DNA of 64,000 bases from Robertmurraya sp. FSL R5-0851 (GTDB taxonomy: Bacteria; Bacillota; Bacilli; Bacillales; Cytobacillaceae), in NCBI RefSeq assembly GCF_038002965.1, contig NZ_JBBOOE010000001.1:4135001-4199000 (forward strand), read 5' to 3'. The notes below the pieces were generated by a model. It was not told the DNA's origin, searched no databases, and saw only the letters and a list, made by a program, of their open reading frames with translations. Made by a program: the position numbers and the translations under genes. Of the stretch, positions 29,910-54,265 are shown in pieces (position 1 is the first letter of the stretch; the number at the start of each line of letters is the position of its first letter).

Positions 29910-30310
29910 GCTCACGGGCACCTATGTATCTGTTTGGTTACCATTCCCTTGCTTTTCTAGGGCTCACGGGCACCTAAGCACCTGTTTGGTTACCATTCCC
30001 TTGCTTTTCTAGGGCTCACGGGCACCTAAGTACTTGTTTGGTTACCGTTCCCTTGTTTTTCTAGGGCTCACGGGCACCTAAGTACTGTTTGGTTACCGTT
30101 CCCTTGTTTTTCTAGGGCTTACGGGCACCTAAGTACTTGTTTGGTTACCGTTCCCTTGTTTTTCTAGGGCTCACGGGCACCTAAGCACCTGTTTGGTTAC
30201 CGTTCCCTTGCTTTTTCTAGGGCTCACGGGCACCTAAGTACCTGTTTGGTTACCGTTCCCTTGCTTTTTCTAGGGCCCGCGGGCACCTAAGTACCTGTTT
30301 GATTACTGTC
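29910..30310. repeat. 52-bp tandem repeat array 1 (8 units)
   Basis: Eight units of the pattern GGCTCACGGGCACCTAAGTA followed by CCTGTTTGGTTACCGTTCCC and TTGCTTTTCTAG. Successive spacings, measured at CTCACGGG, are 52, 52, 52, 51, 52, 53 and 53 bp. Each unit can form TAGGGC-loop-GCACCTA, with loop variants TCACGG, TTACGG and CCGCGG. It fills most of the 643-bp gap between the usp and MarR genes; the rest of that gap holds the MarR operator region and nothing else I recognise. Not coding: 52 is not a multiple of three. Confidence 0.95.
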
Positions 30311-30349
30311 TAATAATTTTTCGAAGGCAGCATACGGAATGCTTGATGT

Positions 30350-30769
30350 TCATTTCACGATTAACACCGGACAGTTTGCTCGTTTGGCTACTTTATGACT
30401 CACACTACCTAGTACAAATTCCTGCAAGCCACTTAACCCTCTGCTACCTATCACAATAATATCCGCATGGTGACTGTTTGCATATTCAACAATCGCCGGC
30501 CCTGGATCACCTTGGAGAATCGTGACCTTGTAGGAAACCTCATAGGTTCTGGCCATTTTCTCGACTTCTCTTATTCGTTCCTTGCGTTTACCATCTAAAT
30601 CGGCTGAGTTCCAGTGACTCAGCACGTCAGATTTCACTTTATCAGCATCAACGACAAATACAATCTCTACTAAAGACCCTGGACTGCAACTAGCAATATG
30701 CATCGCGTTTTCAGCTGCTCTTTTTGCATGATCCGATCCGTCGGTGGCTAGGATGATATTTTTATACAA
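30350..30769 (-). CDS. Universal stress protein UspA family
   Basis: A 139-residue cytoplasmic protein. The N-terminal NIILATDGSDHAKRA and C-terminal ATP-loop GSRGLSGLQEFVLGSVS (G-2x-G-9x-G[ST]) place it with ATP-binding UspA proteins. TTG at 30769 follows AGGAGGTC at good spacing. It has no obvious partner: divergent from the zinc-related permease and followed by repeat array 1. No clear terminator is seen after it apart from the hairpin-bearing array. Confidence 0.88.
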   Translation of the reverse strand: MYKNIILATDGSDHAKRAAENAMHIASCSPGSLVEIVFVVDADKVKSDVLSHWNSADLDGKRKERIREVEKMARTYEVSYKVTILQGDPGPAIVEYANSHHADIIVIGSRGLSGLQEFVLGSVSHKVAKRANCPVLIVK

Positions 30770-30942
30770 TCGATGACCTCCTACTTTTGAAAAAATAGTC
30801 TAATATGTTAATTATGCGTGAACTGCCCCATTCACGCAGTGATGTTCCTCACCGCACCCTCTCATTCATTCACATTTGAGTCTTCCTGAAAAAGAGAGAC
30901 ATATTCCCATGTACAAGCCCATATAGTTTAAGGTAGAATATA

Positions 30943-30962
30943 AAACGTAATTGTTACGGTTT
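30943..30962. promoter_or_regulatory. Zur box upstream of the permease pair
   Basis: AAACGTAATTGTTACGGTTT contains CGTAA-TTG-TTACG, close to the Bacillus Zur consensus TCGTAATNATTACGA. It lies 22 bp upstream of the permease start, over or just after a TAGAAT-like -10, as expected for zinc repression. Confidence 0.75.
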
Positions 30963-30984
30963 AACCAATACATAGGAGGGACAT

Positions 30985-31980
30985 ATGAATCGAATTGTTC
31001 GAACGAACTTGGTTGATATTACCGGATTGATTTTATTAGCAGCCGCTTTTCTTTTACTAACTTTAAAATTAGACGTTGGGGACGTTCTTCCCTCCTCATT
31101 TTTAAATCTTAATACCATTTTTATAAGTATATTAATTGAAGCATTTCCTTTTGTGCTTATCGGCGTTTTGATTGCTGGTGTGATTCAAATCTTTGTAACC
31201 GAAGAACATATTCAGCGGTGGATTCCCCAAAGCAGGACGAAGGCGATTATCATGAGTTGTGTGGTCGGTGCCTTGTTTCCTGCATGCGAATGTGGAATTG
31301 TACCGATTGTTAGACGACTGGTTGCAAAAGGGGTTCCTCTATATGCAGCCATTGGTTTCATGCTAACGGGACCACTTATTAACCCGATCGTAATTGCCTC
31401 CACGTATATGGCGTTTGGAAATAACGCGTCCATAGCTGGTTGGAGAATGGGACTTGGATTTGCCGTTGCTCTTATTGTTGCGTTTTCAGTGAGCTTTTTC
31501 TTCCGAGGACATCAATTTAAGCAGGCACTTGTAAGTACACAAACCATCTCTGCAAGTAGAAAAAAAGAACCTTTGACCCAGCGTTTTTTCTCGATGCTTA
31601 CCCACTCCATTGATGAATTTTTCGATATGGCGAAGTTTTTAATTTTTGGAGCATTTCTTGCTGCAGCTGTACAAACGTATATGCCAGCAAAATCCTTATT
31701 AGAAGCAGGAGATGGACCTTTTTCCTCCATCGCTGTCATGATGGGTCTTGCCTATGTATTATCTCTTTGTTCGGAAGCAGATGCTTTTATCGGTTCATCC
31801 TTTAATAGTATTTTTCCAACACCATCTGTCCTAGCGTTTCTTATTTTCGGACCGATGATTGATTTAAAAAACACACTTATGATGTTAAGTGTTTTCCGTG
31901 CAAAATTTGTATTTAGTGTATTGTTCTTTGTAGCAACAACTGTATTTCTATCCACTGTGCTCGTGCAGAGCTTTTTATAA
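30985..31980 (+). CDS. COG0701/DUF318 permease
   Basis: A 331-residue membrane protein with about eight to nine helices. FPACECGIVPIVRRL is the family cysteine motif, and the second half repeats the fold (LSLCSEADAFIGSSF). Relatives include B. subtilis YcgR and the ArsP group. ATG at 30985 follows AGGAGGG. It is followed 12 bp later by a TIGR03943 partner, and a Zur box lies upstream, pointing to zinc-deficiency-induced transport. The substrate (zinc or a zinc chelate) is inference. Confidence 0.88.
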   Translation: MNRIVRTNLVDITGLILLAAAFLLLTLKLDVGDVLPSSFLNLNTIFISILIEAFPFVLIGVLIAGVIQIFVTEEHIQRWIPQSRTKAIIMSCVVGALFPACECGIVPIVRRLVAKGVPLYAAIGFMLTGPLINPIVIASTYMAFGNNASIAGWRMGLGFAVALIVAFSVSFFFRGHQFKQALVSTQTISASRKKEPLTQRFFSMLTHSIDEFFDMAKFLIFGAFLAAAVQTYMPAKSLLEAGDGPFSSIAVMMGLAYVLSLCSEADAFIGSSFNSIFPTPSVLAFLIFGPMIDLKNTLMMLSVFRAKFVFSVLFFVATTVFLSTVLVQSFL

Positions 31981-31992
31981 GGAGGGATTTAG

Positions 31993-32907
31993 GTGGTCTT
32001 CCAAACCCAACAAGCCGTACGTGCAGCGATTTTGCTTCTATTCACGGTGTTAATTTTTAAATTTCACTATACTGGTGAGATTACTATGTTTATTAATCCG
32101 AAATACATCGGACTCAGTCAGATCGCGTCTGTTCTGTTCCTAATCTTGTTCTTCATCCAAATTACACGTATTTGGGAGAAAAAGACTCATCACCATCATC
32201 ATGACCATGAGTGTAGCCATCATCATGACTGTGATCATAACCATGACCATGGAAATACACCGATGACACTTAAAAAAGTGGTATCGTACGTCATTATCGC
32301 CTTTCCTCTTGTGACTGGTTTTACCATACCAGCTAAAGTACTCGATTCTTCTATCGCAGAGAAAAAAGGTGGAATGGCGGTGATTACCGGAAAAAGTGAA
32401 ACATCTTCAACTGATGAATCAGCACAGGAAGAAGTGGTTCAACCCTCCGACACGGAGGAGGTAGTTCCGAATCCATATGGCGAAATCACTCAAGAAGAGA
32501 TGAATTCTCTTGTTCAAAAATTAAAGCAAAGTGATCCCATTGACATGGATGATTATGTGTATTATTTAAACTATGAAGAAATTAGTAAGGACGTAGCCTC
32601 ATATAAAGGAAGAGAAATCACGTTAAGAGGCTTCGTTTATAAAGAGGAAGGCTTTCAATCAGATCAGCTTGTCATCTCCCGTTTCTTGATTACTCACTGT
32701 GTGGCAGATGCAAGCATTATCGGTTTTTTAACACAATTTGATGAAGCAGCTACACTGGATAAAGATACATGGGTAGAAGCCACTGGTGTACTAGATGTAA
32801 CAACCTATAACGGAACGGAGATGCCCTTTATCAAAATTACCAACTGGAAAACGATCGAACAACCATCTGAACCGTACCTATTTCCTTTAAACGTAAAAAT
32901 CTTATAA
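31993..32907 (+). CDS. TIGR03943/DUF1980 permease partner with His-rich loop
   Basis: A 304-residue protein. Two N-terminal helices (about 8-28 and 35-55) are followed by a histidine-rich stretch at about 59-83 (HHHHHDHE, HHHDCDHNHDH), another helix, an acidic linker and a C-terminal beta-rich domain (about 190-304) with KGREITLRGFVY and THCVADAS. GTG at 31993 follows GGAGGG. The pair with a COG0701 permease is conserved (YcgR-YcgQ in B. subtilis). The His-rich loop and the Zur box together argue for zinc handling; mechanism unknown. Confidence 0.88.
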   Translation: MVFQTQQAVRAAILLLFTVLIFKFHYTGEITMFINPKYIGLSQIASVLFLILFFIQITRIWEKKTHHHHHDHECSHHHDCDHNHDHGNTPMTLKKVVSYVIIAFPLVTGFTIPAKVLDSSIAEKKGGMAVITGKSETSSTDESAQEEVVQPSDTEEVVPNPYGEITQEEMNSLVQKLKQSDPIDMDDYVYYLNYEEISKDVASYKGREITLRGFVYKEEGFQSDQLVISRFLITHCVADASIIGFLTQFDEAATLDKDTWVEATGVLDVTTYNGTEMPFIKITNWKTIEQPSEPYLFPLNVKIL

Positions 32908-32913
32908 TAAATA

Positions 32914-32955
32914 GAGGGGAGAATGCCATCAGTTAGTCATTCTCCCCTCCTTTTA
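32914..32955 (+). terminator. Terminator after the permease operon
   Basis: Perfect 12-bp stem GAGGGGAGAATG/CATTCTCCCCTC followed by CTTTTATG. Confidence 0.88.
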
Positions 32956-33026
32956 TGTTATTCATCTTTTTCATCATAGGCGATTAACACGATATTTTCG
33001 TTTGTTTCCTGATCTCAATTATGCAA

Positions 33027-33857
33027 TTAACGGTTCACGACTCGTTGTATATGAATAATCAAGTATAATTTTTCGTTATTCGTAAGGCTGTAGTCAAATT
33101 GATTTTCAATATATTCATTAATTTTCTCCGTACATTCAAATGCTGCTTTATGCTTCTCACGCACCGTTTCAAATAAGAACGGGTCGTCATCTTCAATATA
33201 CGTCTTAGTATATAAACGCTGAGCAAAAAACTTTAAATGTGTAATAAACCGAAAATAATTTAATGATTCCTCGTCGAAGTCTATTTTAAAATGATATTTC
33301 ACAATATTTAAAATGTCCTGCATGACTTTCGTGATGTTAGCAACATTCGGCATTTCCTGGTTGAGCTCTGCATTCACGATATGCATCGCGATAAAGCTCG
33401 CTTCATCTTCTGGTAAAAGAACTCCAAGCTTCTCCTGAATAATCTTTAAGGCTTCCATCCCAATCACAAATTCTTGCTTATAAAATCGCTTAATTTCCCA
33501 TAAAAGCGCATTTTTAATGTCGTATCCTTTTTCATTTCGCTCTACCGCAAAATGAATATGATCGGTTAAGGAAATATAGATACTATCGTTTAGATTTCTT
33601 CCAAGTCTACTTTTGGCAATCTTAATAATATCTTCTGTTACTTCCATGTATTCGATCGGAACTTCATATAAAAGCGTTTTAAATTTTTCTGACATATCGT
33701 TATTTTTGAGAGCAAAAATCTTCTCAATCTTGTCTTCTTCTATAAAATCTCCTGGCTTTTTTTGAAAGGCCAGACCTCTCCCCATTACCACTAACTCTTC
33801 GTTTTTTTCGTTAAACGCACTGATTACGTTGTTATTGTATACTTTGGCTATTTTCAT
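33027..33857 (-). CDS. licT: LicT/BglG-family transcriptional antiterminator
   Basis: A 276-residue RNA-binding regulator. The co-antiterminator domain is residues 1-55 (MKIAKVYNNNVISAFN), followed by two PRDs with phosphorylatable histidines in SLTDHIHFA, FIAMHIVNAE, ITHLKFFAQ and YLIIHIQRV. It binds the RAT hairpin when beta-glucosides are transported and is inhibited by EII-dependent phosphorylation. Two RAT/terminator leaders are found in this locus (before bglP and before the second bgl gene). It follows bglH in the same direction; a hairpin lies between them. Confidence 0.95.
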   Translation of the reverse strand: MKIAKVYNNNVISAFNEKNEELVVMGRGLAFQKKPGDFIEEDKIEKIFALKNNDMSEKFKTLLYEVPIEYMEVTEDIIKIAKSRLGRNLNDSIYISLTDHIHFAVERNEKGYDIKNALLWEIKRFYKQEFVIGMEALKIIQEKLGVLLPEDEASFIAMHIVNAELNQEMPNVANITKVMQDILNIVKYHFKIDFDEESLNYFRFITHLKFFAQRLYTKTYIEDDDPFLFETVREKHKAAFECTEKINEYIENQFDYSLTNNEKLYLIIHIQRVVNR

Positions 33858-33940
33858 TTGACCACCTATAAATTTATTATGGTTCTCTTACTGTTATTAT
33901 AATGGAAATAGTGCGCGTTATAAAATCTTTTAGACATTCA

Positions 33941-33970
33941 AAAGAAGGAAAGCTAACACCGAGCTTTCCC
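33941..33970 (-). terminator. Terminator after bglH
   Basis: Stem GGAAAGCT/AGCTTTCC with loop CGGTGTT, then TTCTTTTG on the minus strand. It may only partly separate bglH from licT. Confidence 0.7.
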
Positions 33971-33986
33971 ACTTTTACCCAACTAC

Positions 33987-37406
<3,420 letters not shown>

Positions 37407-37435
37407 TTATATGATATTTATTTATTTTTCCAAAT

Positions 37436-37522
37436 AAAAAACCTGAGCCAATTAGGAACACACACTGCTAGCGATAGCGTGTTCTAATCAGTTCAGGTTA
37501 TGCCCACTTAAGGTAACATTCC
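37436..37522 (-). promoter_or_regulatory. LicT RAT and overlapping terminator, bglP leader
   Basis: On the minus strand the RAT hairpin GGAATGTTACCTTAAG then TGGGCATAACCTGAAC (37491-37522) overlaps the left arm of a terminator whose ends are AACCTGA and TCAGGTT, followed by TTTTTTATTT (37436-37499). LicT binding to the RAT would prevent terminator folding and allow bglP-bglH expression. Confidence 0.85.
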
Positions 37523-37581
37523 TTCAAGGAATTTATTAAGTTTTATTTGATACGTGTAATTTATCACGGGAATTTGGTAGG

Positions 37582-37715: not shown

Positions 37716-37721
37716 AAATTC

Positions 37722-37750: not shown

Positions 37751-37778
37751 TAACGCAATTAAACAAACAACCTTTTTA

Positions 37779-37910: not shown

Positions 37911-39356
<1,446 letters not shown>

Positions 39357-39364
39357 TAAATAGG

Positions 39365-39400
39365 AAGCATTGGTCCATTTGGTGGGCCAATGCTTTTTTT
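39365..39400 (+). terminator. Terminator after the second bgl gene
   Basis: Stem AAGCATTGG..CCAATGCTT followed by TTTTTT. Confidence 0.88.
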
Positions 39401-39436: not shown

Positions 39437-39930
39437 CCAATTGTTGTGGGGAATGAAGGACGGTTCTTCTGAAATCTCCACAGTATGTCCTTCATAAGCT
39501 CGATGAAAGACGTTTCCTCGGGCTTCTCCCCTGGTTTTATCCTTCATAGGCCCAATGAAAGACGTTTCCTCGTAAATCTCCCCTGGTTTCATCCTTCATA
39601 AGCCCAATGAAAGACGTTTCCTCGTAAATCTCCCCTGGTTTTATCCTTCATAAGCCCAATGAAAGACGTTTCCTCGTAAATCTCCCCTGGTTTCATCCTT
39701 CATTAACCCTATGAAAGACGTTTCCTCGGGCTTCTCCCCTGGTTTTATCCTTCATTAACCCTATGAAAGACGTTTCCTCGGGCTTCTCCCCTGGTTTTAT
39801 CCTTCATAAGCCCAATGAAAGACGTTTCCTCGTAAATCTCCCTTGGTTTTATCCTTCATTAACCCTATGAAAGACGTTTCCACCGAATTCATCTCTAATT
39901 TTGCTCTTCATAAGCTTTATGTAAACTGCG
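39437..39930. repeat. 52-bp tandem repeat array 2
   Basis: Eight consecutive units start at 39489, 39541, 39593, 39645, 39697, 39749, 39801 and 39853, each exactly 52 bp with no indel. A degenerate unit precedes (from 39437) and another follows. Unit pattern: CCTTCATAAGCCCAATGAAA, GACGTTTCCTCGTAAATCTC, CCCTGGTTTTAT. CCTTCAT and ATGAAAG form a stem; loop variants are AAGCCCA and TAACCCT, and the downstream patch is TAAA or GGCT, shuffled between units. It fills the convergent gap between the second bgl gene and uppP. Confidence 0.96.
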
Positions 39931-40732
39931 CTAGCACCAACACCAACGGTCCAACAATAAAGCAATAATAAGCGAAGTACTTCAAATTCCCTCGCTCCAT
40001 AATTCCCATAAACCACTTAAGCGAGAAGTAAGATAATAATAGAGACATCACAAACGCCACGATATAAGGTATAAGCATGTCTCCCAATTGCATGTCTCCT
40101 ACTTTTAACACAATCGCCCCTAAGCTAACGGGAATATATAGCAGGAATGAGAATCGTAAGGCGGTTTCTCTTTTCATTCCTATTCCCATCGCAGCCACGA
40201 TTGTTGCACCTGAGCGGCTTATTCCAGGAATTAATGCAACTGCTTGAGCACAACCAACAATAAGGGCATCCTTAACCGTTAACCCTCTGTCTCCTTTTGT
40301 TCCCTTAAGATTTCTAATAAGCCATAGTGCTATCCCTGTTACGAGTAAAGCTCCACCAATTGGAGCTATTCCTCTGAAATAACTAGAGATCGTATCTTCT
40401 AATAGAATCCCAATCACTCCAGCAGGTATCGTACCAATTATTAAATAAACGATAAAGAGAAAATCATTCTTATCATTTGGATCCTTTTTCACTATATATT
40501 GGCTACCATTTATAAGTAATCTGATGAGGTCCTCTCGATAAATGAGTAATACAGCCAAAAGGGATGCGAAATTCATTAATACTTCAAAGCTAAAATCTCC
40601 TTCAGCCACATCAATTCCTAAAAATTCCTGAACGAGCACCAAATGTCCGCTAGAGGAAATAGGAATAGGTTCTGTAAAACCTTGTAGTGCTCCTAAAAAC
40701 GCATATTTTAATATGATTAATATTTCTTCCAC
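39917..40732 (-). CDS. uppP: Undecaprenyl-diphosphatase (BacA/UppP)
   Basis: A 271-residue membrane enzyme with about eight helices that recycles undecaprenyl diphosphate for cell-wall synthesis. Motif 1 is [14 protein letters not shown], the second [13 protein letters not shown] at 40732 lies seven bases after AAGGAG; the longer frame start has no site. The last repeat remnant of array 2 overlaps its 3' end by a few bases. Confidence 0.93.
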
Positions 40733-40754
40733 CGACTCACTCCTTAACAAAAAT

Positions 40755-44517: not shown

Positions 44518-44735
44518 TGGATGTATTCATTCAAAGCATCAGCTTGATTTGGAGTGGCGGGCATGATAGCCTCGTTCGGCGATGCCAATGTTGTAAAACA
44601 GCTGGCTTCTTGGCAGGAGAATCATGCCCGCAGAGGCTCCATGTCAAGCAACATGGCCTTTTTGAAGAATAATGAAAGAAATCTATAAAATAAAAAACTG
44701 AGGAAATGAAAGAATAAGAGAGTTATTGTCCAAAA

Positions 44736-45787
44736 TTCGGGGGTTAATCCGGAAAGAGGCTATTTTGAAGTGTCCTCATTGTTCTAAAACACTTGAGAAA
44801 GTCAAGGCGCGAAAAGACTTTGACGTGTATAAGTGCAAGAATAATGACTGTTCCTATTACCAAAGAAAACTGAATGGTATGTCTTCAAAAGAGAAGAAAC
44901 AGTTTAAAAAGGACCCTCAAGCCTTTAAGATTAGATACATTTACCGACAGTTTCGAATTGATTTTCAGCCATTGTCTAAGTCTACTCCACAGAAGCCAAA
45001 GGTAGATTTATCAAGGTTATATGTTTCGCCACATACATTAGGGCTCATTTTAACCTACCATGTTAACTATGGCCTTTCGGCCCGTAAAACAGCAGCACTG
45101 ATGAAAGATGTTCACGGGGTATCTATATCGCATCAAAGCATTTTAAATTACGAGAATGCAGTAGCCCTTACACTTAAGCCTTACGTAGATTACTACCCGT
45201 ATGAACTTTCTGACCAGTTCTGCGGGGACGAAACCTATATCAGGGTGAACGGCCGTTGGCATTACTTGTTTTTCTTCTTTGATGCGGTGAAAAAGATTAT
45301 TCTCTCTTACCCAGTGTCACCAAATCGGGATACAGCTACGGCGATCCGTGCGATTGATGATGTCTTAGTGAAGATGAAGGATATTCCTAAAGACCTTACG
45401 TTTGTGGTGGACGGCAATCCGATTTATCTTTTAGCTCAACACTTTTTTGCCCAACACGATATTCAGTTCGATATTAAGCAGGTTATCGGGCTTACCAATG
45501 AAGATCCTGTATCAACGGAGTATCGACCACTAAAGCAAGTAATTGAAAGACTCAATCGCACATTTAAGGGTAATTATCGCTCAACACACGGGTTCGGATC
45601 TGAACACGGCTCTGTTTCTTTCGTCACATTGTTTGTGGCTTACTTTAACTTTTTAAGGCCTCACTCTGCATTAGAAGGTAAGGTGCCCGTGCTTAATCCG
45701 GAGTTATCACAGCTCCCGAATATGCCAGCACGATGGTCTAAACTTATTGGTTTAGCACAAGAATGGATCATTGAGCAATCAGCCTAA
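44736..45787 (+). pseudogene. Transposase, C-terminal part (interrupted)
   Basis: Continues the outer transposase: second zinc ribbon CPHCSKTLEK...CKNNDC, then a DDE integrase-like core with Asp in CGDETYIRVNGRWHYL, Asp in FVVDGNPIY and Glu in QVIERLNRTFKGNYRSTHGF, and C-terminal FNFLRPHSALEG. A TTG inside the IS3 right end (44726) could start a truncated product, lacking the N-terminal domain, so the element is probably immobile by itself. Confidence 0.85.
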
Positions 45788-46790: not shown

Positions 46791-46831
46791 CGTTACACTC
46801 CTCAAGAATATTTCATACCTTCATTGTAATG

Positions 46832-48214
46832 TTATTCCTCTAGCTTTGAAAGTTTAAACCCGGTGATTCCAAATATCATGGTAATAATCGGACTCAACAA
46901 ACAGAAAAATGTAAAAGGAAGATAAGATAAGGTCTCTACTCCTAATACTCCCGTTAAAAAGACTCCACATACACTCCATGGAACCAGTGGATTGACTACC
47001 GTCCCTGCATCTTCTAAAATTCTGGAAAGATTTTTCCCATGTAAGCCCATCTTTTTGTACCTTTCTTTAAAGGAACTTCCTGTTAAAAGGATAGAAAGGT
47101 ATTGTTCTCCAACTAAGAAATTAATGGTAATGGCTGTTCCTGCCGTCCACACCACAAGACTCCAAACTTTATTCAACATTCCACTAATTCCTTCAAGCAG
47201 AGCTGGAAGAATTCCAAGCTTAAAAAATAATCCACCCATGGCTAACGCTAAAAGAATAAGTGAAACAGAAAACATCATGCTTTCCATTCCGCCTCTTGAA
47301 AGCATCGAATCAATTTCCTTCACTCCTGTATCGGAAGAATAACCAGTAAATAGGGTGTTCATTAGCCCCTGAAGATGGACTTCCTTTTGTACAAATATCG
47401 TAACGAAAAGAGAAGTCGCAATTCCTGAAGCCAAGGTAATAATCGCTGGGACTTTTTTAATCGCTAACAATGCTAACACAATAAATGGGAATAAGGAGTA
47501 CCAATGAACTAGATCATGGTCTTTCAAGCTTGCTTTTAAAAGTTCTAAATACGCAAAGTTCGCAGCAGATTCAGCTGGTGATAATAAAACAAATAATAGA
47601 AAGGATAAGACAAACGCCGGGACCGTTGTCCAAGCCATATTTCTGATGTGATCAAACAAATCTACGTGAACAGTTGAAGAAGCCAATATCGTTGTATCTG
47701 ATAGAGGTGACATTTTATCTCCAAAAAAGGCACCAGAAATCACAGCCCCTGCTGTTATCGCATCTGATAACCCAAGCGCAGTGGAAACACTCATAAAGGC
47801 AACACCGATGGTCGCTGCAGTCGTTAACGAACTACCAATACTCATGCCAATAATAGCGGTCACGGCAAACGCAATCGCATAGAACCATTTCTCACTAACG
47901 ACTTCAAGCGCCAAGTAGATAAATGTAGGAATCGTTCCACTTTCCATCCAACTACTAATCAACATCCCGATAAAAAGAAAAATAAATACGGCTCCAGCTC
48001 CAGATTTAGCTCCATTAATGATGGCCTCTTCCAATTCAATAACGGAAACTTTCTTGTATATACCGTAAAGAAACAGTCCCATAATGGCTAAAACAATGGG
48101 AATATGAGGAACGGCACCAGCAAATATAAGAGAATAACTAATTCCCCCAATAACTATCATCGAGATAATAAAAGCTTCCATTGGTTTAATTGTTAGTACG
48201 CTGTCTTGATTCAT
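46832..48214 (-). CDS. NhaC-family antiporter/transporter
   Basis: A 460-residue membrane protein with about 11-12 helices. NhaC signatures: GMSIGSSLTTAATIGVAF, GAFFGDKMSPLSDTTILAS and the C-terminal AGTVVNPLVPWSVCGVF. Family members are Na+/H+ antiporters, malate/lactate antiporters or amino-acid (Tyr, Met, Lys) carriers. ATG at 48214 follows TTGGAGG; the frame upstream runs through the leader terminator and is not coding. A T-box-like leader suggests an amino-acid role here. Confidence 0.85.
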   Translation of the reverse strand: MNQDSVLTIKPMEAFIISMIVIGGISYSLIFAGAVPHIPIVLAIMGLFLYGIYKKVSVIELEEAIINGAKSGAGAVFIFLFIGMLISSWMESGTIPTFIYLALEVVSEKWFYAIAFAVTAIIGMSIGSSLTTAATIGVAFMSVSTALGLSDAITAGAVISGAFFGDKMSPLSDTTILASSTVHVDLFDHIRNMAWTTVPAFVLSFLLFVLLSPAESAANFAYLELLKASLKDHDLVHWYSLFPFIVLALLAIKKVPAIITLASGIATSLFVTIFVQKEVHLQGLMNTLFTGYSSDTGVKEIDSMLSRGGMESMMFSVSLILLALAMGGLFFKLGILPALLEGISGMLNKVWSLVVWTAGTAITINFLVGEQYLSILLTGSSFKERYKKMGLHGKNLSRILEDAGTVVNPLVPWSVCGVFLTGVLGVETLSYLPFTFFCLLSPIITMIFGITGFKLSKLEE

Positions 48215-48248
48215 GATGTTTTCCTCCAATAAGGGTTTTGTGCAAAAG

Positions 48249-48376
48249 AAAAAAGCCCTCAACGTCAATAGGGACAAAGGAGCTCCGCGTTACTACCCTA
48301 ATTCATATAAGAATAGCGGACTTTCTAGATTATGAAGTTCACTATTTTACTTAAACGCTTTTTAGCATTAAAGTAT
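48249..48376 (-). promoter_or_regulatory. Short T-box-like leader of the nhaC-family gene
   Basis: Minus strand: TAGGGTAGTAACGCGGAGCT (48281-48300) resembles the T-box AGGGTGGNACCGCG with two changes, followed by CCTTTGTCCCT and a terminator (CCCT/AGGG stem, then TTTTTTCTTTT, 48247-48273). From the predicted start the leader is only about 128 nt, too short for a full Stem I. The tRNA-pairing TGGN reads TAGT. It may be a degenerate or unconventional T-box. Confidence 0.55.
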
Positions 48377-48382
48377 GTTACT

Positions 48383-48411
48383 AATATAATAATTTACTAG
48401 GTTTCTGTCAA
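48383..48411 (-). promoter_or_regulatory. Sigma-A promoter of the nhaC-family gene
   Basis: Minus strand TTGACA (48406-48411), 17-bp spacer, TATATT (48383-48388). A strong promoter that makes leader attenuation plausible. Confidence 0.8.
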
Positions 48412-48420
48412 GAGAAAAAC

Positions 48421-48458
48421 AAAAAGCAGTGAGTCCTAAGAAGATCTCACTGCTTTTT
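48421..48458. terminator. Terminator after catE
   Basis: Stem AAAAAGCAGTGAG/CTCACTGCTTTTT directly after the catE stop; A/T flanks allow both directions. Confidence 0.88.
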
Positions 48459-48462
48459 CCCA

Positions 48463-49314
48463 TTAAACCTCTAATCGAATTCGATTTCCTGAAGGATCTG
48501 CTGTAATAAATGCACCCTTCTCCTCTGTAACTGTTACGCCTATTCCTTGTAACTGAGAGATGATTTGCTCTCTCTTTTCTTCACTAGGAAACACCATCGT
48601 ATAAGATTCCATGCCAACACTGTTTTCAGCAGCTGGTGGGGCACCGACACCATTCCAGGTGTTCAATCCAATATGGTGATGGTATTTGCCAGTAGAAATA
48701 AATAAGGCCTGACCTCCGTATCGAGTTACAACTTCAAATCCAAGTCCTTTTGTATAAAACTCCTCTGTTTTCTGTAACTCTGATACATGAAGATGAATAT
48801 GCCCCATAATCGTACCAGCTGGCATCCCCGTCCACGCTTCCCCGCCTCCCTCAGCAAGAAGACTTTCCGCATCTAACGCAACCGTGGCCATTTCCACTTC
48901 TCCATTATTCCAACTCCAATCAGAAGCTGGTCTGTCCGCATACACTTCAATTCCATTCCCATCTGGGTCTGCTAAATAGATGGCTTCACTGACCAAATGG
49001 TCGGATGCGCCTTGTAATGGATAACGCACCTGGAGAAAATGTTTTAATAATCTTCCTAGATCTGCACGAGTTGGTAAAAGTAAAGCGAAGTGATAAAGTC
49101 CAGTTGTTCTACCCTGCTTCGACACGACCTCATCCGGCTGTTGAATAGCAACAAGAACGGTTTTCCCATCAGCTGTTAGATCGGCCGTAGTGCTTGTTTG
49201 GTGTAACACCTGTAGTCGGAGGACTTCTTGGTAAAAAGTAAGCGAACGTTCTAAGTTTGCTACTTTTAGGTTTACTTGGCTAACAAATGTATTTGGTTCA
49301 CGATGAAATCCCAT
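48463..49314 (-). CDS. catE: Catechol-2,3-dioxygenase-like VOC protein (CatE)
   Basis: A 283-residue glyoxalase-fold protein with two VOC modules (about 10-125 and 165-280). Metal ligands appear in GHIHLHVSEL, KYHHHIGLNTW and the Glu-bearing C-terminal strand. It resembles B. subtilis CatE along its length; CatE opens catechol rings extradiolically. The divergent HxlR regulator and the TTAC-N5-GTAA operator match the YodB/CatR control of B. subtilis catDE. The catD (DoxX) partner is not adjacent here. Confidence 0.88.
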   Translation of the reverse strand: MGFHREPNTFVSQVNLKVANLERSLTFYQEVLRLQVLHQTSTTADLTADGKTVLVAIQQPDEVVSKQGRTTGLYHFALLLPTRADLGRLLKHFLQVRYPLQGASDHLVSEAIYLADPDGNGIEVYADRPASDWSWNNGEVEMATVALDAESLLAEGGGEAWTGMPAGTIMGHIHLHVSELQKTEEFYTKGLGFEVVTRYGGQALFISTGKYHHHIGLNTWNGVGAPPAAENSVGMESYTMVFPSEEKREQIISQLQGIGVTVTEEKGAFITADPSGNRIRLEV

Positions 49315-49391
49315 TTGTGATCTCTCCTTTAGTATATTGCTTCATTTATACTTATCATTTACTATTTATCTTTTTAAAACCATAGTTAGTA

Positions 49392-49438
49392 ACTTACTTT
49401 ATGTAAGTAATTATATTTTCATAACAAACAAACGTCAA
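49392..49438 (-). promoter_or_regulatory. catE promoter with TTAC-N5-GTAA operator
   Basis: Minus strand TTGACG (49433-49438), 17-bp spacer, TATAAT (49410-49415); immediately downstream, ACTTAC-N5-GTAAGT (49392-49408) is a perfect palindrome over the start site and matches the YodB/CatR box TTAC-N5-GTAA. Confidence 0.8.
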
Positions 49439-49508
49439 GTAAGTATTTTATAAAAAATAATTTAATTATGAAAAAAAGGGGTTATAATAGAAGGAAGGAG
49501 TGATTGTC

Positions 49509-49817
49509 ATGGATAAATCTATTTGTCCTAGATTTGAAAAAGCGATGAGTATTTTAAGCCAAAGATGGACCGGCTTAATTATTTACCAGTTACTAGGTGG
49601 CCCACAGCGTTTTTGCAGCCTAGAATCATCCATTGGTGTCAGTGGTCGTGTGCTTTCAGAGAGGTTAAAGGATTTGGAGAATGAAGGCATTGTGAAGCGC
49701 GAAGTATTCCCAGAAACTCCTGTTCGAATTGAATATTCACTAACTGATAAGGGAGTAGCCTTGGAGCCTCTTATGAGAGATATAGAAAAATGGTCACAAG
49801 CTTGGCTAGAAGTATAA
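49509..49817 (+). CDS. HxlR/DUF24 redox-sensing repressor (YodB/CatR-like)
   Basis: A 102-residue winged-helix protein. Cys6 in MDKSICPRFEKAMSILSQRW aligns with the quinone-sensing Cys6 of YodB/CatR; the helix SSIGVSGRVLSERLKDLE and wing PETPVRIEYSLTDKG are typical. ATG at 49509 lies eight bases after GGAAGGAG; the GTG at 49500 overlaps that site. Divergent from catE across one palindromic operator, so it most likely represses catE and itself until quinones oxidise or alkylate Cys6. A TATAAT -10 is at 49483-49488. Confidence 0.88.
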   Translation: MDKSICPRFEKAMSILSQRWTGLIIYQLLGGPQRFCSLESSIGVSGRVLSERLKDLENEGIVKREVFPETPVRIEYSLTDKGVALEPLMRDIEKWSQAWLEV

Positions 49818-49818
49818 T

Positions 49819-49852
49819 AAAAGGTTGCAATCCTAAGATTGCAACCTTTTTT
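49819..49852 (+). terminator. Terminator of the HxlR gene
   Basis: Stem AAGGTTGCAATC/GATTGCAACCTT, followed by TTTTC. Confidence 0.9.
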
Positions 49853-49854
49853 CA

Positions 49855-50366
49855 TTAGTTCAGTACGGTTTTACTGTCTTTGCCTTTGTTTGTTAACTTA
49901 CGTAAATATGGTAATGCATAACGATCTAGACCGAATAAACCAGCATTCGCACCGGCAGTAATGATTAAGAGCCCATTAAAATATCTGTAGGATTATGAGA
50001 AACTGTCCCTGCCAATAAGAATGAAAAGTTCATTACTATTCCGAAGAAAGAAGCAGCTGTTGTTAGGCAGCCTAAAATTAAACCTAAGCCTACTAGAAAT
50101 TCGCCCCAAGGAACCATAAAGTTAAACAGCTCCACATTCGGTAAAGCGACACTTTCTAGGAATGACGTATACGCACCATACACAGCACTTCCATCTGGAC
50201 CTGCGACCGGATTTTTAATGGCATTCCCAATAAAACCACTTGCATCAAATGCCCCTCCGCTAATTTTCCCCCAACCTGCTGTTAAAAAGCCGTATCCTAA
50301 ATACAGTCGAATAACTGTAACAATCCCTGCTGCAATGTTGTTATTTCTCCACCATTTGTTTATCAT
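49855..50366 (-). pseudogene. DoxX-family membrane protein, frameshifted near the 3' end
   Basis: The open frame gives 133 residues (MINKWWRNNNIAAGIVTVIR to NPTDILMGS) with four helices and DoxX features GFLTAGWGKISGG and VPWGEFLVGLGLILG. It stops at 49965, but the +1 frame continues without break as LLIITAGANAGLFGLDRYAL, then LRKLTNKGKDSKTVLN to a stop at 49855. One G appears lost from the run at about 49968-49972 (ATGGGCTC for ATGGGGCTC). Loss of the last helix would follow. A sequencing error is the alternative. Confidence 0.8.
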
Positions 50367-50513
50367 ATGAATCTTCCTTTCAGTAATAAAAAGTATTATT
50401 TCTATGCCCTAAGATTAACATTCTCAATTTCAAATATCATTACTTCAAGGGATTGTTCAATTTTTCGCTACAAAGTTATGACTTATTTGTGAACTAATTC
50501 ACATAGATTATAA

Positions 50514-50540
50514 TAAAAATACACCAAGATTGGTGTATTT
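50514..50540 (-). terminator. Terminator of the ars operon
   Basis: Stem AAATACACC/GGTGTATTT with a T tail on the minus strand, six bases after the arsC stop. Confidence 0.85.
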
Positions 50541-50545
50541 AAACT

Positions 50546-50965
50546 TTATTTCCCTGTTTCAGCAAATGTTTTAATTCGATCGCCAATTTCATCACGAACA
50601 CGTTGGAAGAATGCCCATTTTTCCTCGTCTGTTCCTTCTGCTTTCGCCGGATCATCAAAGCCCCAATGCTCACGCTTCACATGTGGAGGAGTCACAGGGC
50701 AATGGTCTGCTGCGTGTCCACATAGAGTGACTACTAAGTCGGCATTGTTTAAGATTTCAGGGTCAATCGTGTCAGATGTTTGATTGGAAATATCGATACC
50801 TGCTTCCTTCATTGCTTTCACTGCATTCGGGTTCAAACCGTGTGCTTCCAGTCCAGCACTTTTTACATCCCACTCTTCTCCTAAGTGCTTTTTCGCCCAA
50901 CCTTCCGCCATCTGGCTTCTGCAAGAATTTCCTGTACATAAAAAGTAAATTGTTTTTTTCGTCAT
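50546..50965 (-). CDS. arsC: Arsenate reductase, thioredoxin-coupled
   Basis: A 139-residue low-molecular-weight phosphatase-type ArsC. The P-loop CTGNSCRS carries nucleophile Cys10; Cys82 and Cys89 ([11 protein letters not shown]) complete the disulfide relay that needs thioredoxin, whose reductase is also in this window. Reduces arsenate to arsenite for export by ArsB. Last gene of arsRBC; ATG follows AAGGAG. Confidence 0.96.
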
Positions 50966-50980
50966 GTTTTTCTTCTCCTT

Positions 50981-52279
50981 TTAATGAAGTAATAGTAACC
51001 AAATATAAAGCCCAACCAACGTAATGAATAGTGTTGGGATGGTTAGAATAATACCTGTTTTAAAATAAGTCCCCCATGAAATTTTGACTCCCTTTTGTGA
51101 TAAAACATGGAGCCATAATAGAGTCGCAAGGGACCCAATCGGAGTAATCTTGGGTCCAAGATCCGAACCAATGACATTTGCATAGATGAGCGCTTCTCGA
51201 ATGACTCCCGATGTATTGGTATCAGCAATCGCTAACGCATCAATCATAACGGTCGGCATATTGTTCATGACAGAGGATAAAATCGCCGCAATAAAGCCCA
51301 TCCCAATAGTGGCTGCGAACAATCCTTGATCAGCTGTTACCTGAATCAGGTCTGCTAATACATTAGTTAAGCCTACATTTCGCAAACCGTAAACAACCAC
51401 ATACATTCCAATTGAGAAAAAGACAATCGCCCATGGTGCCCCTTTTACAACGGTGCGCGTATTGACAGCCGGACTTCTTCTTGCCAAAAGGAGGAAGAAG
51501 ATCGCGACCATTCCAGCAATAATTGAAACAGGAATTCCTGTAAACTCACTCGCAAAATATCCAATAAGAAGAATTGCTAACACGAGCCAAGAGAGACGAA
51601 ACATTTTCTGATCTCGTATCGCATCTACCGGTTTTTTCAGCTGTGTAAGATCATAGGATTTAGGAATACTTTTTCGAAAATAAAGATAAAGAACCAGAAT
51701 GCTCGCTGCTAACGAAAAGAAATTTGGCACAATCATCCTTGAGGCGAATTCAGCAAAGCCGATGCCAAAAAAGTCAGCAGAAACAATATTCACCAGGTTA
51801 CTAACGACAAGTGGTAACGAGGTGGTGTCCGCGATAAATCCACTTGCGATAATAAAGGGAAACACCATACCCTCGTTGAATTGTAAGTTTCGAACCATCG
51901 CCAGGACGATTGGTGTGAGAATTAATGCAGCTCCATCATTAGCAAAGAATGCTGCAACGATTGCTCCTAAAATGGAAACATACACAAACATGCGAACACC
52001 GTTTCCTTTTGCAGCCCGAGCCATATGAAGGGCCGACCACTCAAAGAAACCAATTTCATCTAGAATTAAAGAAATAATAATAATGGCGATAAATGCTAAG
52101 GTCGCATTCCAAACGATGCCCGTTACATCAAGAACATCCTGAAAATCGACTACTCCAACAAGCAGTGCCACGATTGCCCCACCACAAGCGGACCACCCAA
52201 TCGACAACCCCTTCGGCTGCCAAATAACTAAAACCAGTGTCAGCAAAAAAATCACTGATGCTAAAACAATTGATGTCAC
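50981..52279 (-). CDS. arsB: Arsenite efflux transporter ArsB
   Basis: A 432-residue ArsB/NhaD-type transporter with about 12 helices. [18 protein letters not shown] and [19 protein letters not shown] are family signatures. Exports arsenite or antimonite with proton antiport, no ArsA needed. GTG at 52279 follows AGGAGG; it begins 12 bp after arsR and ends 15 bp before arsC. Confidence 0.95.
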
Positions 52280-52291
52280 AAATGAACCTCC

Positions 52292-52642
52292 TTATTCACA
52301 ACAAGAAATACGTAACCCTTGTTTTTCTAACTCATCCAACCGGTAGCCTTGATCAGGTAATGATTTAAGAACATCCTGCAAGAATAGGTAGTACTCACTT
52401 TCCTTATTTAAGGAATAAATAATCCACTGTCCCCTTCTTGATTCCTTAACAATGCCCTTATCCTTAAGCTTTCTTACATGCTGGCTGATCGCTGGCTGAC
52501 TGGTTTTAAAAATCTCAACAAACTCACACACACAGCAGTCATGTGAATCTAATATTTTCACGATCGTTAATCGTGTTTTGTCTCCTAGAAGCTTTAAGAT
52601 ATGAGCGAACTCTTCAATCTCAATGACAGATTCTTGTTGCAT
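52292..52642 (-). CDS. arsR: Arsenic-responsive repressor ArsR
   Basis: A 116-residue SmtB/ArsR winged-helix repressor. HDCCVCEFVEIFKTSQPAIS contains the thiol cluster and recognition helix; a further CC pair ends the protein (RISCCE). Binds arsenite and derepresses arsRBC. ATG follows AGGAGGTG. The divergent promoter region is shared with a second ArsR-type gene. Confidence 0.94.
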   Translation of the reverse strand: MQQESVIEIEEFAHILKLLGDKTRLTIVKILDSHDCCVCEFVEIFKTSQPAISQHVRKLKDKGIVKESRRGQWIIYSLNKESEYYLFLQDVLKSLPDQGYRLDELEKQGLRISCCE

Positions 52643-52794
52643 GAAAACACCTCCTAATTGGCCATTAGAATACGTTTATCTTTCCCAAATGTTTGATGCA
52701 AATAAGCATATAATCGATTACTTATATAATAATACACTTATATACATAGCTCAATCCGTTTTTTGTAAAGCTTTTGTAAAATCGATAAAACAAA

Positions 52795-52868
52795 ATCAAT
52801 TTTTTTGATTTAACAGTTGCCAAAACTTACCACTGGAAGTATAATACAGTATATCAAGTATTTTTGAT
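52795..52868 (+). promoter_or_regulatory. Promoter and two operators of the second ArsR gene
   Basis: TTGCCA (52817-52822), 17-bp spacer, TATAAT (52840-52845). ATCAA-N5-TTGAT (52795-52809) lies just upstream of the -35; ATCAA-N6-TTGAT (52853-52868) covers the expected start site. Confidence 0.8.
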
Positions 52869-52884
52869 TAAAGGAGAACGAAAA

Positions 52885-53235
52885 GTGAAACAGTTCATTC
52901 CCTTAACGGACGTAACTCGTACAACTAATGAAGAGATCAATCTGCAAAAAAAGCTTGAAACATACGAAGCCAAATTCAAAGCCCTTGCAGATCAAAAACG
53001 CCTATACATCTTACACCTTTTGGTTCAACAAAACTCGAGCTGTGTTTGTGATTTGAGTGAGTTGATTGACATGCCTCAATCCAAGCTTTCGTATCACTTA
53101 AAAATTTTGCTTGATGCGGGTTTAATCACAAAAGAAACAAAAGGTACGTGGAGCTATTACCAAGTAAACACCGAAGAAATCAATCACCTACTGTCCCCTG
53201 AGCTTTGCTGCCTATTTAGACCTAGCTGCAGTTAG
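52885..53235 (+). CDS. Second ArsR-family regulator with CVCDL motif
   Basis: A 116-residue winged-helix protein. FKALADQKRLYILHLL, the metal(loid)-binding CVCDLSELIDMPQSKLSYHL and wing KETKGTWSYYQV are visible; the C-terminus adds LCCLFRPSCS, three more cysteines. GTG at 52885 lies eight bases after AAAGGAG; the TTG at 52864 is inside the operator. It is divergent from arsRBC, and ATCAA/TTGAT operators flank its promoter and precede the next two small genes. Arsenic is the likely signal by position; another thiophilic metal is possible. Confidence 0.9.
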   Translation: MKQFIPLTDVTRTTNEEINLQKKLETYEAKFKALADQKRLYILHLLVQQNSSCVCDLSELIDMPQSKLSYHLKILLDAGLITKETKGTWSYYQVNTEEINHLLSPELCCLFRPSCS

Positions 53236-53255
53236 GTTTTCTTTTAAAGGATTAG

Positions 53256-53293
53256 ATCAATTTTTTTTGATTAATACATCAATATATTTTGAT
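53256..53293 (+). promoter_or_regulatory. Two further ATCAA-N6-TTGAT operators
   Basis: Perfect palindromic half-sites at 53256-53271 and 53278-53293, centres 22 bp apart, just upstream of the ribosome binding site of the next small gene. No strong promoter is seen between the regulator's stop and these sites. Confidence 0.75.
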
Positions 53294-53309
53294 TAAAGGA
53301 GACGATCAC

Positions 53310-53474
53310 ATGTTTTATCAAGACTATCATGCCATCGCAAAGCTAAAGCAACAGGAAGTCGAAAGAAATGCTAGACACGCTTGGAAGTTTTTTGAGAGAG
53401 AAGAATCGAAAAAAATCTCGATCCCCGCTCCACGTAAAGATCCAAATTGCTGTGTTACACCGGCTAACGCTTAA
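53310..53474 (+). CDS. Small protein with C-terminal CC motif
   Basis: A 54-residue protein: N-terminal charged helix MFYQDYHAIAKLKQQEVER, then ARHAWKFFEREESKK, ending PNCCVTPANA. ATG lies eight bases after AAAGGAG. I do not recognise a characterised family. Position behind two ArsR-type operators and the paired cysteines suggest metal(loid) binding or a role in the stress response governed by the upstream regulator. Cotranscription with the next gene is likely (22 bp gap). Confidence 0.75.
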   Translation: MFYQDYHAIAKLKQQEVERNARHAWKFFEREESKKISIPAPRKDPNCCVTPANA

Positions 53475-53496
53475 TTTGAAAGGAGGTGAATTCAAA

Positions 53497-53628
53497 ATGA
53501 GCTTTTTGAAGAAACTAGTAAAAACAAATAATTCAGATTGCTGTGGTGTGGAAATCAAAGAAGTTAGTGAAAAAGATGAGAAGACTAGCGCTTGTTGTGG
53601 TGGAGCCGATCAGACTAAGTGTTGTTAA
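53497..53628 (+). CDS. Small cysteine-rich putative metal-binding protein
   Basis: A 43-residue protein MSFLKKLVKTNNSDCCGVEI, then an acidic linker and ACCGGADQTKCC: three CC pairs in 43 residues. It resembles the small family named for an LDCC/DCCG motif (putative metal-binding), whose function is not established. ATG lies seven bases after AGGAGGTGA, a strong site. A longer in-frame start at 53368 overlaps the previous gene and is unsupported. Likely expressed under the CVCDL ArsR regulator. Confidence 0.8.
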   Translation: MSFLKKLVKTNNSDCCGVEIKEVSEKDEKTSACCGGADQTKCC

Positions 53629-53683
53629 TAGATTATAGTAGGAATGGCTCGAATGGGTATGTTCGTGCCATTCTTTTTTCGTT

Positions 53684-54265
53684 GTTTGTATTCGGACTTG
53701 CTCCTTCTTTTTTCTCATGCATCTGTCCGAATCACCACTGCATTTGGACTCTGTCCTCCTTTTTTCGGTGATTCCTGTCCAAATCACCACTGCATTTGGA
53801 CTCGATCCTTCTTTTTTCGGTGATTCCTGTCCGAATCACCATTGCATTTGGACTCTGTCCTTCTTTTTTCGGCCACTACTGTCCGAATCATCACTGCATT
53901 CGGACTCTGTCCTTCTTTTTCGGCCACTACTGTCCGAATCATCACTGCATTCGGACTCGAGCCTCCTTTTTTGGCGACTACTGTCCGAATCATCACTGCA
54001 TTCGGACTCTGTCCTTCTTTTTTCGGCCACTACTGTCCGAATCATCACTGCATTTGGACTCGAGCCTCCTTTTTGCGGTGACTCCTGTCCGAATCATCAC
54101 TGCATTCGGACTCGAGCCTCCTTTTTGCGGTGATTGCTGTCCGAATCAACACGCATTCGGACTCTGTCCTTCTTTTTTCCAGCGACCCCTGCCCGAATCA
54201 CCCTGCCATTCAGACTCGATCCTCCTTTTTCCAGCAACCCCTGTCCAAATCCCCCTCCCCCACCA
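53684..54265. repeat. 52-bp tandem repeat array 3
   Basis: Units start at 53725, 53777, 53829, 53881, 53932, 53983, 54035, 54087, 54139, 54191 and 54243: steps of 52 except two of 51. A partial unit precedes and the right end decays. Pattern: GTCCGAATCATCACTGCATT, CGGACTCTGTCCTTCTTTTT, TCGGCCACTACT. GTCCGAAT and ATTCGGAC form an 8-bp stem with a 9-base loop; one unit has GTCCAAAT with ATTTGGAC, a compensated pair. It fills most of the 750-bp gap before lmrA. Frames over it are not genes. Confidence 0.96.

What the first reader, a model, noticed from the sequence alone, without database searches (positions are those of the whole stretch)
29910..54265. Three unrelated tandem arrays share a strict 52-bp period
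Arrays at 29910-30310, 39437-39930 and 53684-54265 have no obvious sequence similarity to each other, yet all use a 52-bp unit: array 2 has eight units with no indel, array 3 steps are 52 except two of 51, array 1 is 51-53. 52 bp equals five turns of B-DNA at 10.4 bp per turn, so a feature in each unit would face the same side of the helix. Each unit also carries a short inverted repeat whose stem is kept while the loop varies. The common length suggests selection on spacing, not sequence: for example an architectural protein, a condensin or nucleoid contact, or a spaced RNA hairpin ladder.
Basis: partly seen in the sequence, partly recalled or inferred. Interest (0 to 1): 0.82.

Follow-up and report, generated by a model that had tools for sequence, protein, structure and literature searches.

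The report
Replication-oriented 52-bp palindromic repeat arrays
Three strings of 52-letter DNA repeats in a Bacillus relative belong to an already described but unexplained class; they share a hidden paired core with other such repeats and in most genomes checked point the same way as DNA copying, which suggests protein-binding arrays on the chromosome.

Summary
In detail: three tandem arrays with 51-53-bp steps and mutually unrelated units. The kind is already published as 52-nt tandem repeats of Bacillus, constant in size, variable in sequence, function unknown (PMC8161180). The host is close to Robertmurraya korlensis.

What appears new: (1) units are not sequence-free. Each window array belongs to a motif class that recurs in the genome; classes I and II recur across genera, and class I (ATTCGGAC-N27-GTCCGAAT) in another order. 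In 26 published consensus units GTC-N19-GAC is the commonest triplet/spacing pair: 7 hits, shuffle mean 0.16. (2) In the window's family, 76 of 89 arrays scored carry the purine-rich strand on the leading strand, also against flanking genes in 8 of 10 conflicts; but 0 of 5 class I arrays in the other order do. (3) Half-sites look conserved as sequence rather than pairing. (4) One locus holds 2 to about 13 units in congeners, edges and orientation kept.

Best reading: helically phased dyad sites for an unknown dimeric DNA-binding protein. No protein was identified.

The parts
29910..30306 (-). Array 1: 7.6 units of 52 bp, class III (GGTAACC / GGTTCCC-type half-sites). Purine-rich strand is minus, the leading strand here. 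Lies between a Usp-family gene (its 3' end side) and a MarR-family gene, both on the minus strand.
39437..39917 (-). Array 2: class II (GTC(T/C)TTCAT...ATGAAGGA), inner steps all 52 bp. Lies between convergent genes: after the terminator of a glycosyl hydrolase family 1 gene and up to the stop codon of uppP/BacA.
53684..54265 (-). Array 3: class I (GTCCGAAT-N9-ATTCGGAC plus a 27-bp spacer with a central A-tract). Begins and ends flush with a half-site. Both flanking genes are on the plus strand (head-on to the fork), yet the purine-rich strand is minus.
53643..53682 (+). Terminator-like hairpin plus T-run that ends the upstream ars-type operon, directly before array 3 (read by eye)
39366..39400 (+). 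Terminator-like hairpin plus T-run after the glycosyl hydrolase gene, before array 2 (read by eye)
29269..29706 (-). Flanking gene: MarR-family regulator
30350..30769 (-). Flanking gene: universal stress protein family
37917..39356 (+). Flanking gene: glycosyl hydrolase family 1
39917..40750 (-). Flanking gene: BacA/UppP family; used to place the organism
54379..54957 (+). Flanking gene: TetR family, LmrA/YxaF-like C-terminal domain

Best explanation
The three arrays are members of one genome-wide system of phased dyad-site arrays. Each 52-bp unit holds two inverted half-sites about 17 bp apart (class I: GTCCGAAT-N9-ATTCGGAC) and a purine-rich spacer, with an A-tract half a period from the dyad in classes I and III. 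Inferred mechanism: a dimeric DNA-binding protein, or a few related ones for the different classes, reads the half-sites. A period of five helical turns puts successive dimers on one face of the DNA, so that they bind or bend it cooperatively into a stiff or wrapped segment placed mostly behind gene ends. Units turn over by whole-unit gain and loss, probably coupled to the replication fork, which would explain why in this family most arrays carry the purine-rich strand on the leading strand. Shown: geometry, half-site conservation, polarity in the window's family, placement, turnover. Inferred: the protein, cooperativity, and any role in nucleoid structure or fork traffic.
For: Period. Geometry: class I linker 9 in 526 of 535 half-site pairs and spacer 27 in 477 of 532; class II linker 7 in 157 of 161 and spacer 29 in 149 of 161 (half-sites with at most one mismatch). 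Class I frame at up to two mismatches: 86 in the own genome and 293 in congener G002 against 2 and 1 for the reversed-pattern control. Half-sites vary less than loop and spacer (51 arrays). Core shared by otherwise different published units: GTC-N19-GAC is the top triplet/spacing pair, 7 hits in 26 units; 2000 plain shuffles gave a mean of 0.16 and a maximum of 3. Central A enrichment in classes I (0.66 vs 0.30) and III (0.82 vs 0.22). Polarity 76 of 89. Purine skew on the leading strand, median 0.26 in 65 arrays vs 0.035 in 362 control intergenic stretches. Convergent:divergent flanks 16:4 vs 122:132 in background.
Against: No binding protein was found, and no dedicated search for one was made. 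Three half-site classes in one genome do not fit a single sequence-specific protein. A dyad-binding protein does not by itself explain polarity. Polarity is not absolute: G050 shows 3 agreeing and 5 disagreeing arrays, G142 1 and 2, and the own genome has four reversed class I arrays. In the other-order genomes the five class I arrays fetched have weak purine skew whose sign is opposite to the local GC skew in all five, so polarity was not reproduced there. The A-tract signal is weak in class II (0.51 vs 0.45) and in 'other' arrays (0.42 vs 0.38). Steps of 51 and 53 do not compensate one another. An orthologous site without any array exists (L083), so that array at least is dispensable.
Confidence: 0.4

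Rival explanations
1. Fork-driven satellite without function: units expand and contract by slippage on one replication strand, helped by the inverted repeats; one orientation is more stable, and the 52-bp step is set by replisome or hairpin geometry.
For: Copy number differs by whole units at one locus (about 11, about 13, 2 and 2 units in four congeners); array presence varies at the uppP locus; polarity relative to the fork in this family.
Against: Half-sites are more conserved than the rest of the unit within arrays, and class I recurs in 11 of 25 genera sampled in the family and in another order; slippage does not predict conserved sequence. About 10% of listed class I steps are 51 or 53, but only 3 of 59 non-coding arrays of 51-53 bp have such a period.
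Confidence: 0.27
2. RNA hairpin ladder or small RNA: the arrays act after transcription as strings of stem-loops (RNA decay block, sponge or sRNA).
For: Arrays fold better than shuffles: array 3 z -9.7 (minus strand) and -8.3 (plus strand), array 2 minus strand -8.4, array 1 minus strand -3.7. G-T wobbles on the purine strand outnumber A-C mispairs in class I (60 vs 36 array-by-pair cells) and class II (32 vs 25), not in class III (8 vs 11). Published RNA-seq reads match such repeats in B. coagulans (PMC8161180, PMC8625621; passages seen).
Against: Almost no compensatory change in stems and conserved mispairs in class III. Orientation follows replication rather than flanking genes in 8 of 10 conflicts. 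No Rfam match in the window at gathering score. The wobble excess may be mutation bias (inconclusive).
Confidence: 0.11
3. Mobile or recombination element: units are sites for a transposase or recombinase (REP/BIME-like elements moved as single-strand DNA, or recombinase cores with conserved arms and a free central linker), which would explain spread, tandem gain and loss, and fork polarity.
For: Array edges tend to be flush with a half-site: only the lone inner arm is present at 35 of 56 upstream and 28 of 56 downstream edges in class I, and at 18 of 28 and 19 of 28 in class II. Conserved arms with a variable 7-9-bp linker. Same class at many loci and in another order. Polarity.
Against: Isolated single units are rare in the listed part of the own genome (two seen by eye). 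No target-site duplication was shown; the one empty site compared (L083) also lacks about 50 bp outside the array. No transposase or recombinase was tested. The edge bias is only about 1.7-2.0 times my own estimate of chance (0.33).
Confidence: 0.14

Closest known systems
52-nt tandem repeats / satellites of Bacillus and other Firmicutes (Subirana and Messeguer, IJMS 2021, PMC8161180: abstract and parts 1-4 of 5 of the text seen; J Bacteriol 2020: not held, recalled)
   Same: Non-coding, 51-53-nt unit, several sequence families per genome, partial conservation between strains; the authors consider a nucleoid protein or an RNA role.
   Different: They report short signals within a species but no sequence conservation between species. 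Here 26 of the 27 consensus units of their Table 1 give GTC-N19-GAC as the top pair, half-site classes cross genera and one crosses orders, and arrays are polarised by replication in the window's family. The terms orientation, leading strand, palindrom and hairpin do not occur in that paper.
REP/BIME elements of enterobacteria (recalled)
   Same: Palindromic, intergenic, behind gene ends, many copies.
   Different: Here strict head-to-tail 52-bp steps; no RAYT enzyme was tested.
Polar chromosome motifs such as SpoIIIE SRS or FtsK KOPS (recalled)
   Same: Purine-rich and skewed to the leading strand.
   Different: Those are scattered short words; these are non-coding arrays with dyads. No SRS octamer test was made.
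Phased multi-site recombination or operator DNA, such as resolvase res sites about five turns apart (recalled)
   Same: Inverted half-sites in pairs, spaced by about five helical turns.
   Different: No partner enzyme known; arrays of up to about 22 units in a row.

Membership tests
52-nt tandem repeats of Bacillus (Subirana and Messeguer) | Unit of 51-53 nt, at least four regular copies | tested here: met
52-nt tandem repeats of Bacillus (Subirana and Messeguer) | Non-coding, several families of different sequence in one genome | tested here: met
   flanking genes. Two ORFs (138 and 162 aa) are open across array 3; a 52-bp period shifts frame at each unit and they were not pursued
52-nt tandem repeats of Bacillus (Subirana and Messeguer) | Sequence species-specific, no conservation between species (the authors' description, not a criterion of their search) | tested here: not met
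   class I and II array queries hit 29 and 25 of 151 family genomes; class I arrays also in another order
CRISPR array | Identical repeats with unique spacers, and cas genes nearby | tested here: not met
   spacers repeat with the unit; 20 window proteins scanned show no Cas domain
Structured RNA with conserved stems | Compensatory base changes in the stem | tested here: not met
Structured RNA with conserved stems | Match to a described RNA family | tested here: not met
   no Rfam match at gathering score in the window
REP/BIME with RAYT transposase | REP-associated tyrosine transposase in the genome | not tested
   no search made
SRS/KOPS-type polar motif | Strong leading-strand polarity | tested here: inconclusive
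   76 of 89 arrays in the window's family, but G050 and G142 do not show it and 0 of 5 class I arrays of the other order agree by purine sign
SRS/KOPS-type polar motif | Recognised SpoIIIE/FtsK octamer inside the unit | not tested
   no search made

The most novel reading that the evidence does not exclude
The 52-nt satellites of Firmicutes are one old, chromosome-organising system: helically phased dyad sites with a common GTC-N19-GAC core in part of its members, read by an unidentified dimeric protein or a set of diversified ones, whose half-sites diversify between arrays while period and dyad geometry are kept and, in the window's family, so is orientation to the replication fork.
Probability: 0.27. 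Interest if true: 0.85.

Novelty: new member of a known kind. Interest (0 to 1): 0.53.

Why it matters
The 52-nt satellites have been called enigmatic in print: constant size, no sequence conservation, no function. Fork polarity and a shared dyad core give handles on them: a defined DNA probe for a pull-down, a helical-phase test, and a genome-wide orientation test that can separate a replication or nucleoid role from an RNA role.

Tried and rejected
RNA hairpin reading: tested by pair counts and class III mispairs and by orientation against flanking genes; disfavoured. Wobble test for the folded strand: the excess of G-T over A-C on the purine strand could mark folding, but C>T also exceeds G>A in arms (26 vs 16 events; per base 0.0233 vs 0.0126) while spacers are near equal (0.0572 vs 0.0527); too few events to decide.

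Background purine bias as the whole cause of polarity: control intergenic stretches have median skew 0.035 against 0.26 in arrays, and some reversed arrays keep a clear purine strand (L256), so composition seems to travel with the array. By local GC skew alone 54 of 65 arrays agree, 83%, against 64% of control stretches.

Compensation of 51 by 53 steps: not seen (one 53-51 pair among neighbours). Empty-site test: L083 lacks the array but also about 50 bp beyond it and comes from a metagenome-assembled genome, so it settles nothing. Paper search by motif letters listed papers on unrelated subjects, judged from the listing only.

Limits of the counts. The 40 stretches were placed on hits, so the histogram leans to 52. 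Samples not placed on arrays: and the 80 named UppP loci, where 11 of 43 arrays are 51-53 or 102 bp and 14 of 43 are 20-21 (these loci include the array 2 locus itself). One of the 20 G002 stretches was placed on a known array. The class II query was an array of the own genome other than array 2; class III was searched in five genomes of the genus only (3 of 5 hit). One search used 106 of 125 arrays (52-bp consensus and a stem of 7 or more); one search used 51 class I arrays; 96 rows listed by hand; 7 near the presumed terminus left out, 89 scored; terminus from GC skew in two genomes and taken as opposite dnaA in twelve; orthologous arrays of G000 and G002 both count; the strand of G002:202603 was set by its purine-rich strand. 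The lists were cut by the tool, so the table is incomplete. Eight further arrays that only TRF found in these genomes (L030:5537, L047:8117, L164, L167, L173, L179, L181:13451, L283:1513) were not in the table; by purine sign seven agree and one, L283:1513, disagrees. One search used 26 of the 27 units of the published table; I left one B. alcalophilus unit out by oversight, and by eye it holds no GTC. I first saw GTC-N19-GAC by eye in that table and in my classes, then scanned every triplet and spacing.

Full report
OBSERVATION. The three arrays are real: TRF reports period 52 at 29910-30306, 39488-39881 and 53723-54251, and anchor steps are 51-53 apart from one edge step of 50. Their units are no more similar to each other than shuffled units. 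They lie between genes: Usp and MarR; a glycosyl hydrolase family 1 gene and UppP/BacA, convergent; an ars-type operon and TetR.

HOST AND GENOME. UppP places the organism next to Robertmurraya korlensis (two records at 93% identity; a metagenome-assembled 'Bacillus sp.' has 95%). Contig 1 is 4.76 Mb. dnaA lies at its start, and GC skew changes sign between the samples at about 1.92 and 2.02 Mb, which gives origin and terminus. Congener G002 (5.03 Mb, one contig) has dnaA at its start and the skew change between about 2.62 and 2.85 Mb.

PRIOR ART. Subirana and Messeguer (PMC8161180; abstract and parts 1-4 of 5 of the text seen) catalogue tandem repeats in 176 Bacillus genomes. Units of 51-53 nt are the largest class, present in about 30% of species, with several families per genome; they describe short signals within a species, state that there is no sequence conservation, and discuss a nucleoid protein or small RNA. 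So constant 52 with variable sequence is known. In that paper the terms orientation, leading strand, palindrom and hairpin do not occur, and replication and inverted occur once each in other senses. Searches of the paper library listed no other treatment of 52-nt repeats than papers of the same group (PMC8625621 on transcription, PMC6749651 without the term 52 nt; passages seen). Subscription papers are mostly not held; their 2020 J Bacteriol paper could not be read.

PERIOD. In the evenly spaced sample of the own genome outside the window, four of seven arrays are 52, 52, 53 or 105 bp and three are 11, 18 and 30. In 80 named UppP loci, 11 of 43 arrays are 51-53 or 102 and 14 of 43 are 20-21. 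With the hit-centred stretches added, non-coding arrays are 59 at 51-53 (56 of them 52), 4 at 102-105, 16 at 20-21 and 6 at 40-42, while most in-ORF arrays are multiples of three (leaning to 52 by choice of stretches). Within class I the listed unit steps are 52 in 456 of 519, 53 in 36 and 51 in 15.

HIDDEN SEQUENCE. Consensus units of 125 distinct arrays, read on the purine-rich strand, fall largely into three classes: I GTCCGAAT-N9-ATTCGGAC (units in 62 arrays), II GTCCTTCAT-N7-ATGAAGGAC (32), III GGTAACCAAA-N7-TTAGGTTCCC (13). Array 3 is class I, array 2 class II, array 1 class III. Class sizes lean on my query choice. Geometry is tight. The class I 43-bp frame with up to two mismatches occurs 86 times in the own genome and 293 times in G002, against 2 and 1 for the reversed control pattern. 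With one mismatch it occurs in 23 of 398 Bacilli genomes, but only six have two or more (66, 6, 113, 42, 12, 2); three of these (113, 42, 12) belong to a family of another order, and single hits are at the level of the control. Of ten stretches fetched from those three genomes, five hold 52-bp class I arrays, at least one in each genome. In 26 consensus units printed by Subirana and Messeguer, GTC-N19-GAC occurs seven times, in units of five species; it is the commonest of all triplet and reverse-complement pairs at spacings 3-45, and 2000 plain shuffles average 0.16 with a maximum of 3. Among 33 mutually dissimilar (under 60%) units of my catalogue it is again first with 12, ten of which are class I-like.

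SEQUENCE, NOT PAIRING. Within class I arrays, arms differ from the array consensus at 2.2% of bases, loops at 8.0% and spacers at 7.1% (units had to match the arms with at most two mismatches each, which lowers the arm figure somewhat). Stem pairs hardly covary, and class III keeps two mispairs in nearly all units. Against this, G-T wobbles outnumber A-C mispairs on the purine strand in classes I and II, which mutation bias may or may not explain. Folding is stronger than in shuffles for both strands of array 3 and the minus strands of arrays 1 and 2, as dyads would give in any case. On balance this points to half-sites read in double-stranded DNA.

POLARITY. Array orientation (strand with the purine-rich spacer, or the CAGG...GAG side of class I) was compared with the leading strand from dnaA and terminus: 76 agree, 13 disagree, 7 of 96 rows near the terminus were left out (binomial p 5e-12 without correction for relatedness). 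By class: I 57:13, II 14:0, III 5:0. By genome: G000 18:4, G002 15:1, G062 10:0, G085 3:1, G050 3:5, G142 1:2, and eight others without disagreement (26:0). The own genome's exceptions at 608, 614, 676 and 4097 kb form a class I subfamily with a less purine-rich spacer. Array purine skew on the leading strand (median 0.26, 65 arrays) far exceeds that of 362 control intergenic stretches (0.035). Where both flanking genes run head-on to the fork, 8 of 10 arrays still follow replication, array 3 among them; where genes run with the fork, 19 of 23 do. In the other-order genomes all five class I arrays have weak purine skew of the sign opposite to the local GC skew, so polarity is a property of the window's family as far as I can tell.

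PLACEMENT. Flank contexts of 55 arrays with both neighbours: tandem 35, convergent 16, divergent 4, against 122 convergent and 132 divergent background gaps (Fisher p 0.009; genes are simple ORF calls). Median distance is 116 bp to a neighbour's 3' end and 172 bp to a 5' end.

TURNOVER. At the array 3 locus, G000, G002, G004 and G001 carry about 11, about 13, 2 and 2 units with the same edges and orientation; in G003 the contig ends there (unit numbers read by eye and from TRF). At the array 2 locus one close relative has a homologous array, one a diverged array and one none. Array edges are more often flush with a half-site than random truncation would give by my estimate.

MECHANISM. Conserved half-sites, fixed dyad geometry and a five-turn step argue for cooperative binding by a dimeric protein. 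Fork polarity in this family argues that replication shapes gain, loss or function. Which protein, and whether the purpose is nucleoid structure, fork traffic or none, is not shown. The strongest alternative is a functionless satellite shaped by fork-coupled slippage; it does not explain half-sites conserved across genera.

VERDICT. The finding is a good rediscovery of a published, unexplained class, made more interesting by polarity and the shared core.

Noticed in passing
L085:10872-11061, L084:10864-11152, L083 after 9069: At one locus behind uppP, close relatives carry a homologous array, a diverged array, or none.
   Followed up: partly
window:39917-39925: The end of uppP (TTTACAT on the minus strand, running into its stop codon) serves as the first half-site of array 2; the empty-site relative L083 has TTTTCAT there without a partner arm. 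A gene end may have seed an array.
   Followed up: no
genome G050 (stretches L254-L257): Class I arrays without replication polarity (3 agreeing, 5 disagreeing); a natural exception worth checking for rearrangement or recent spread.
   Followed up: partly
L300, L301, L304, L305, L307: Class I arrays of another order have weak purine skew with the sign opposite to the local GC skew.
   Followed up: partly
L091, L093, L094, L096: Arrays with 120-121-bp period in Pseudalkalibacillus and relatives, some of which also have 20-bp arrays; possibly multiples of the 20-bp class.
   Followed up: no
G000:C1:607673, 614421, 675943, 4097443 and G002:C1:649679: A class I subfamily with a less purine-rich spacer is consistently reversed relative to the other arrays.
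   Followed up: partly
window:43645-44517 and 44726-45787: Two transposase-like genes (rve with HTH_21, and an IS240-type DDE domain) between arrays 2 and 3.
   Followed up: no
L306:9811-10663: Array of 222-bp period that contains class I half-sites in another-order genome, a possible higher-order repeat.
   Followed up: no
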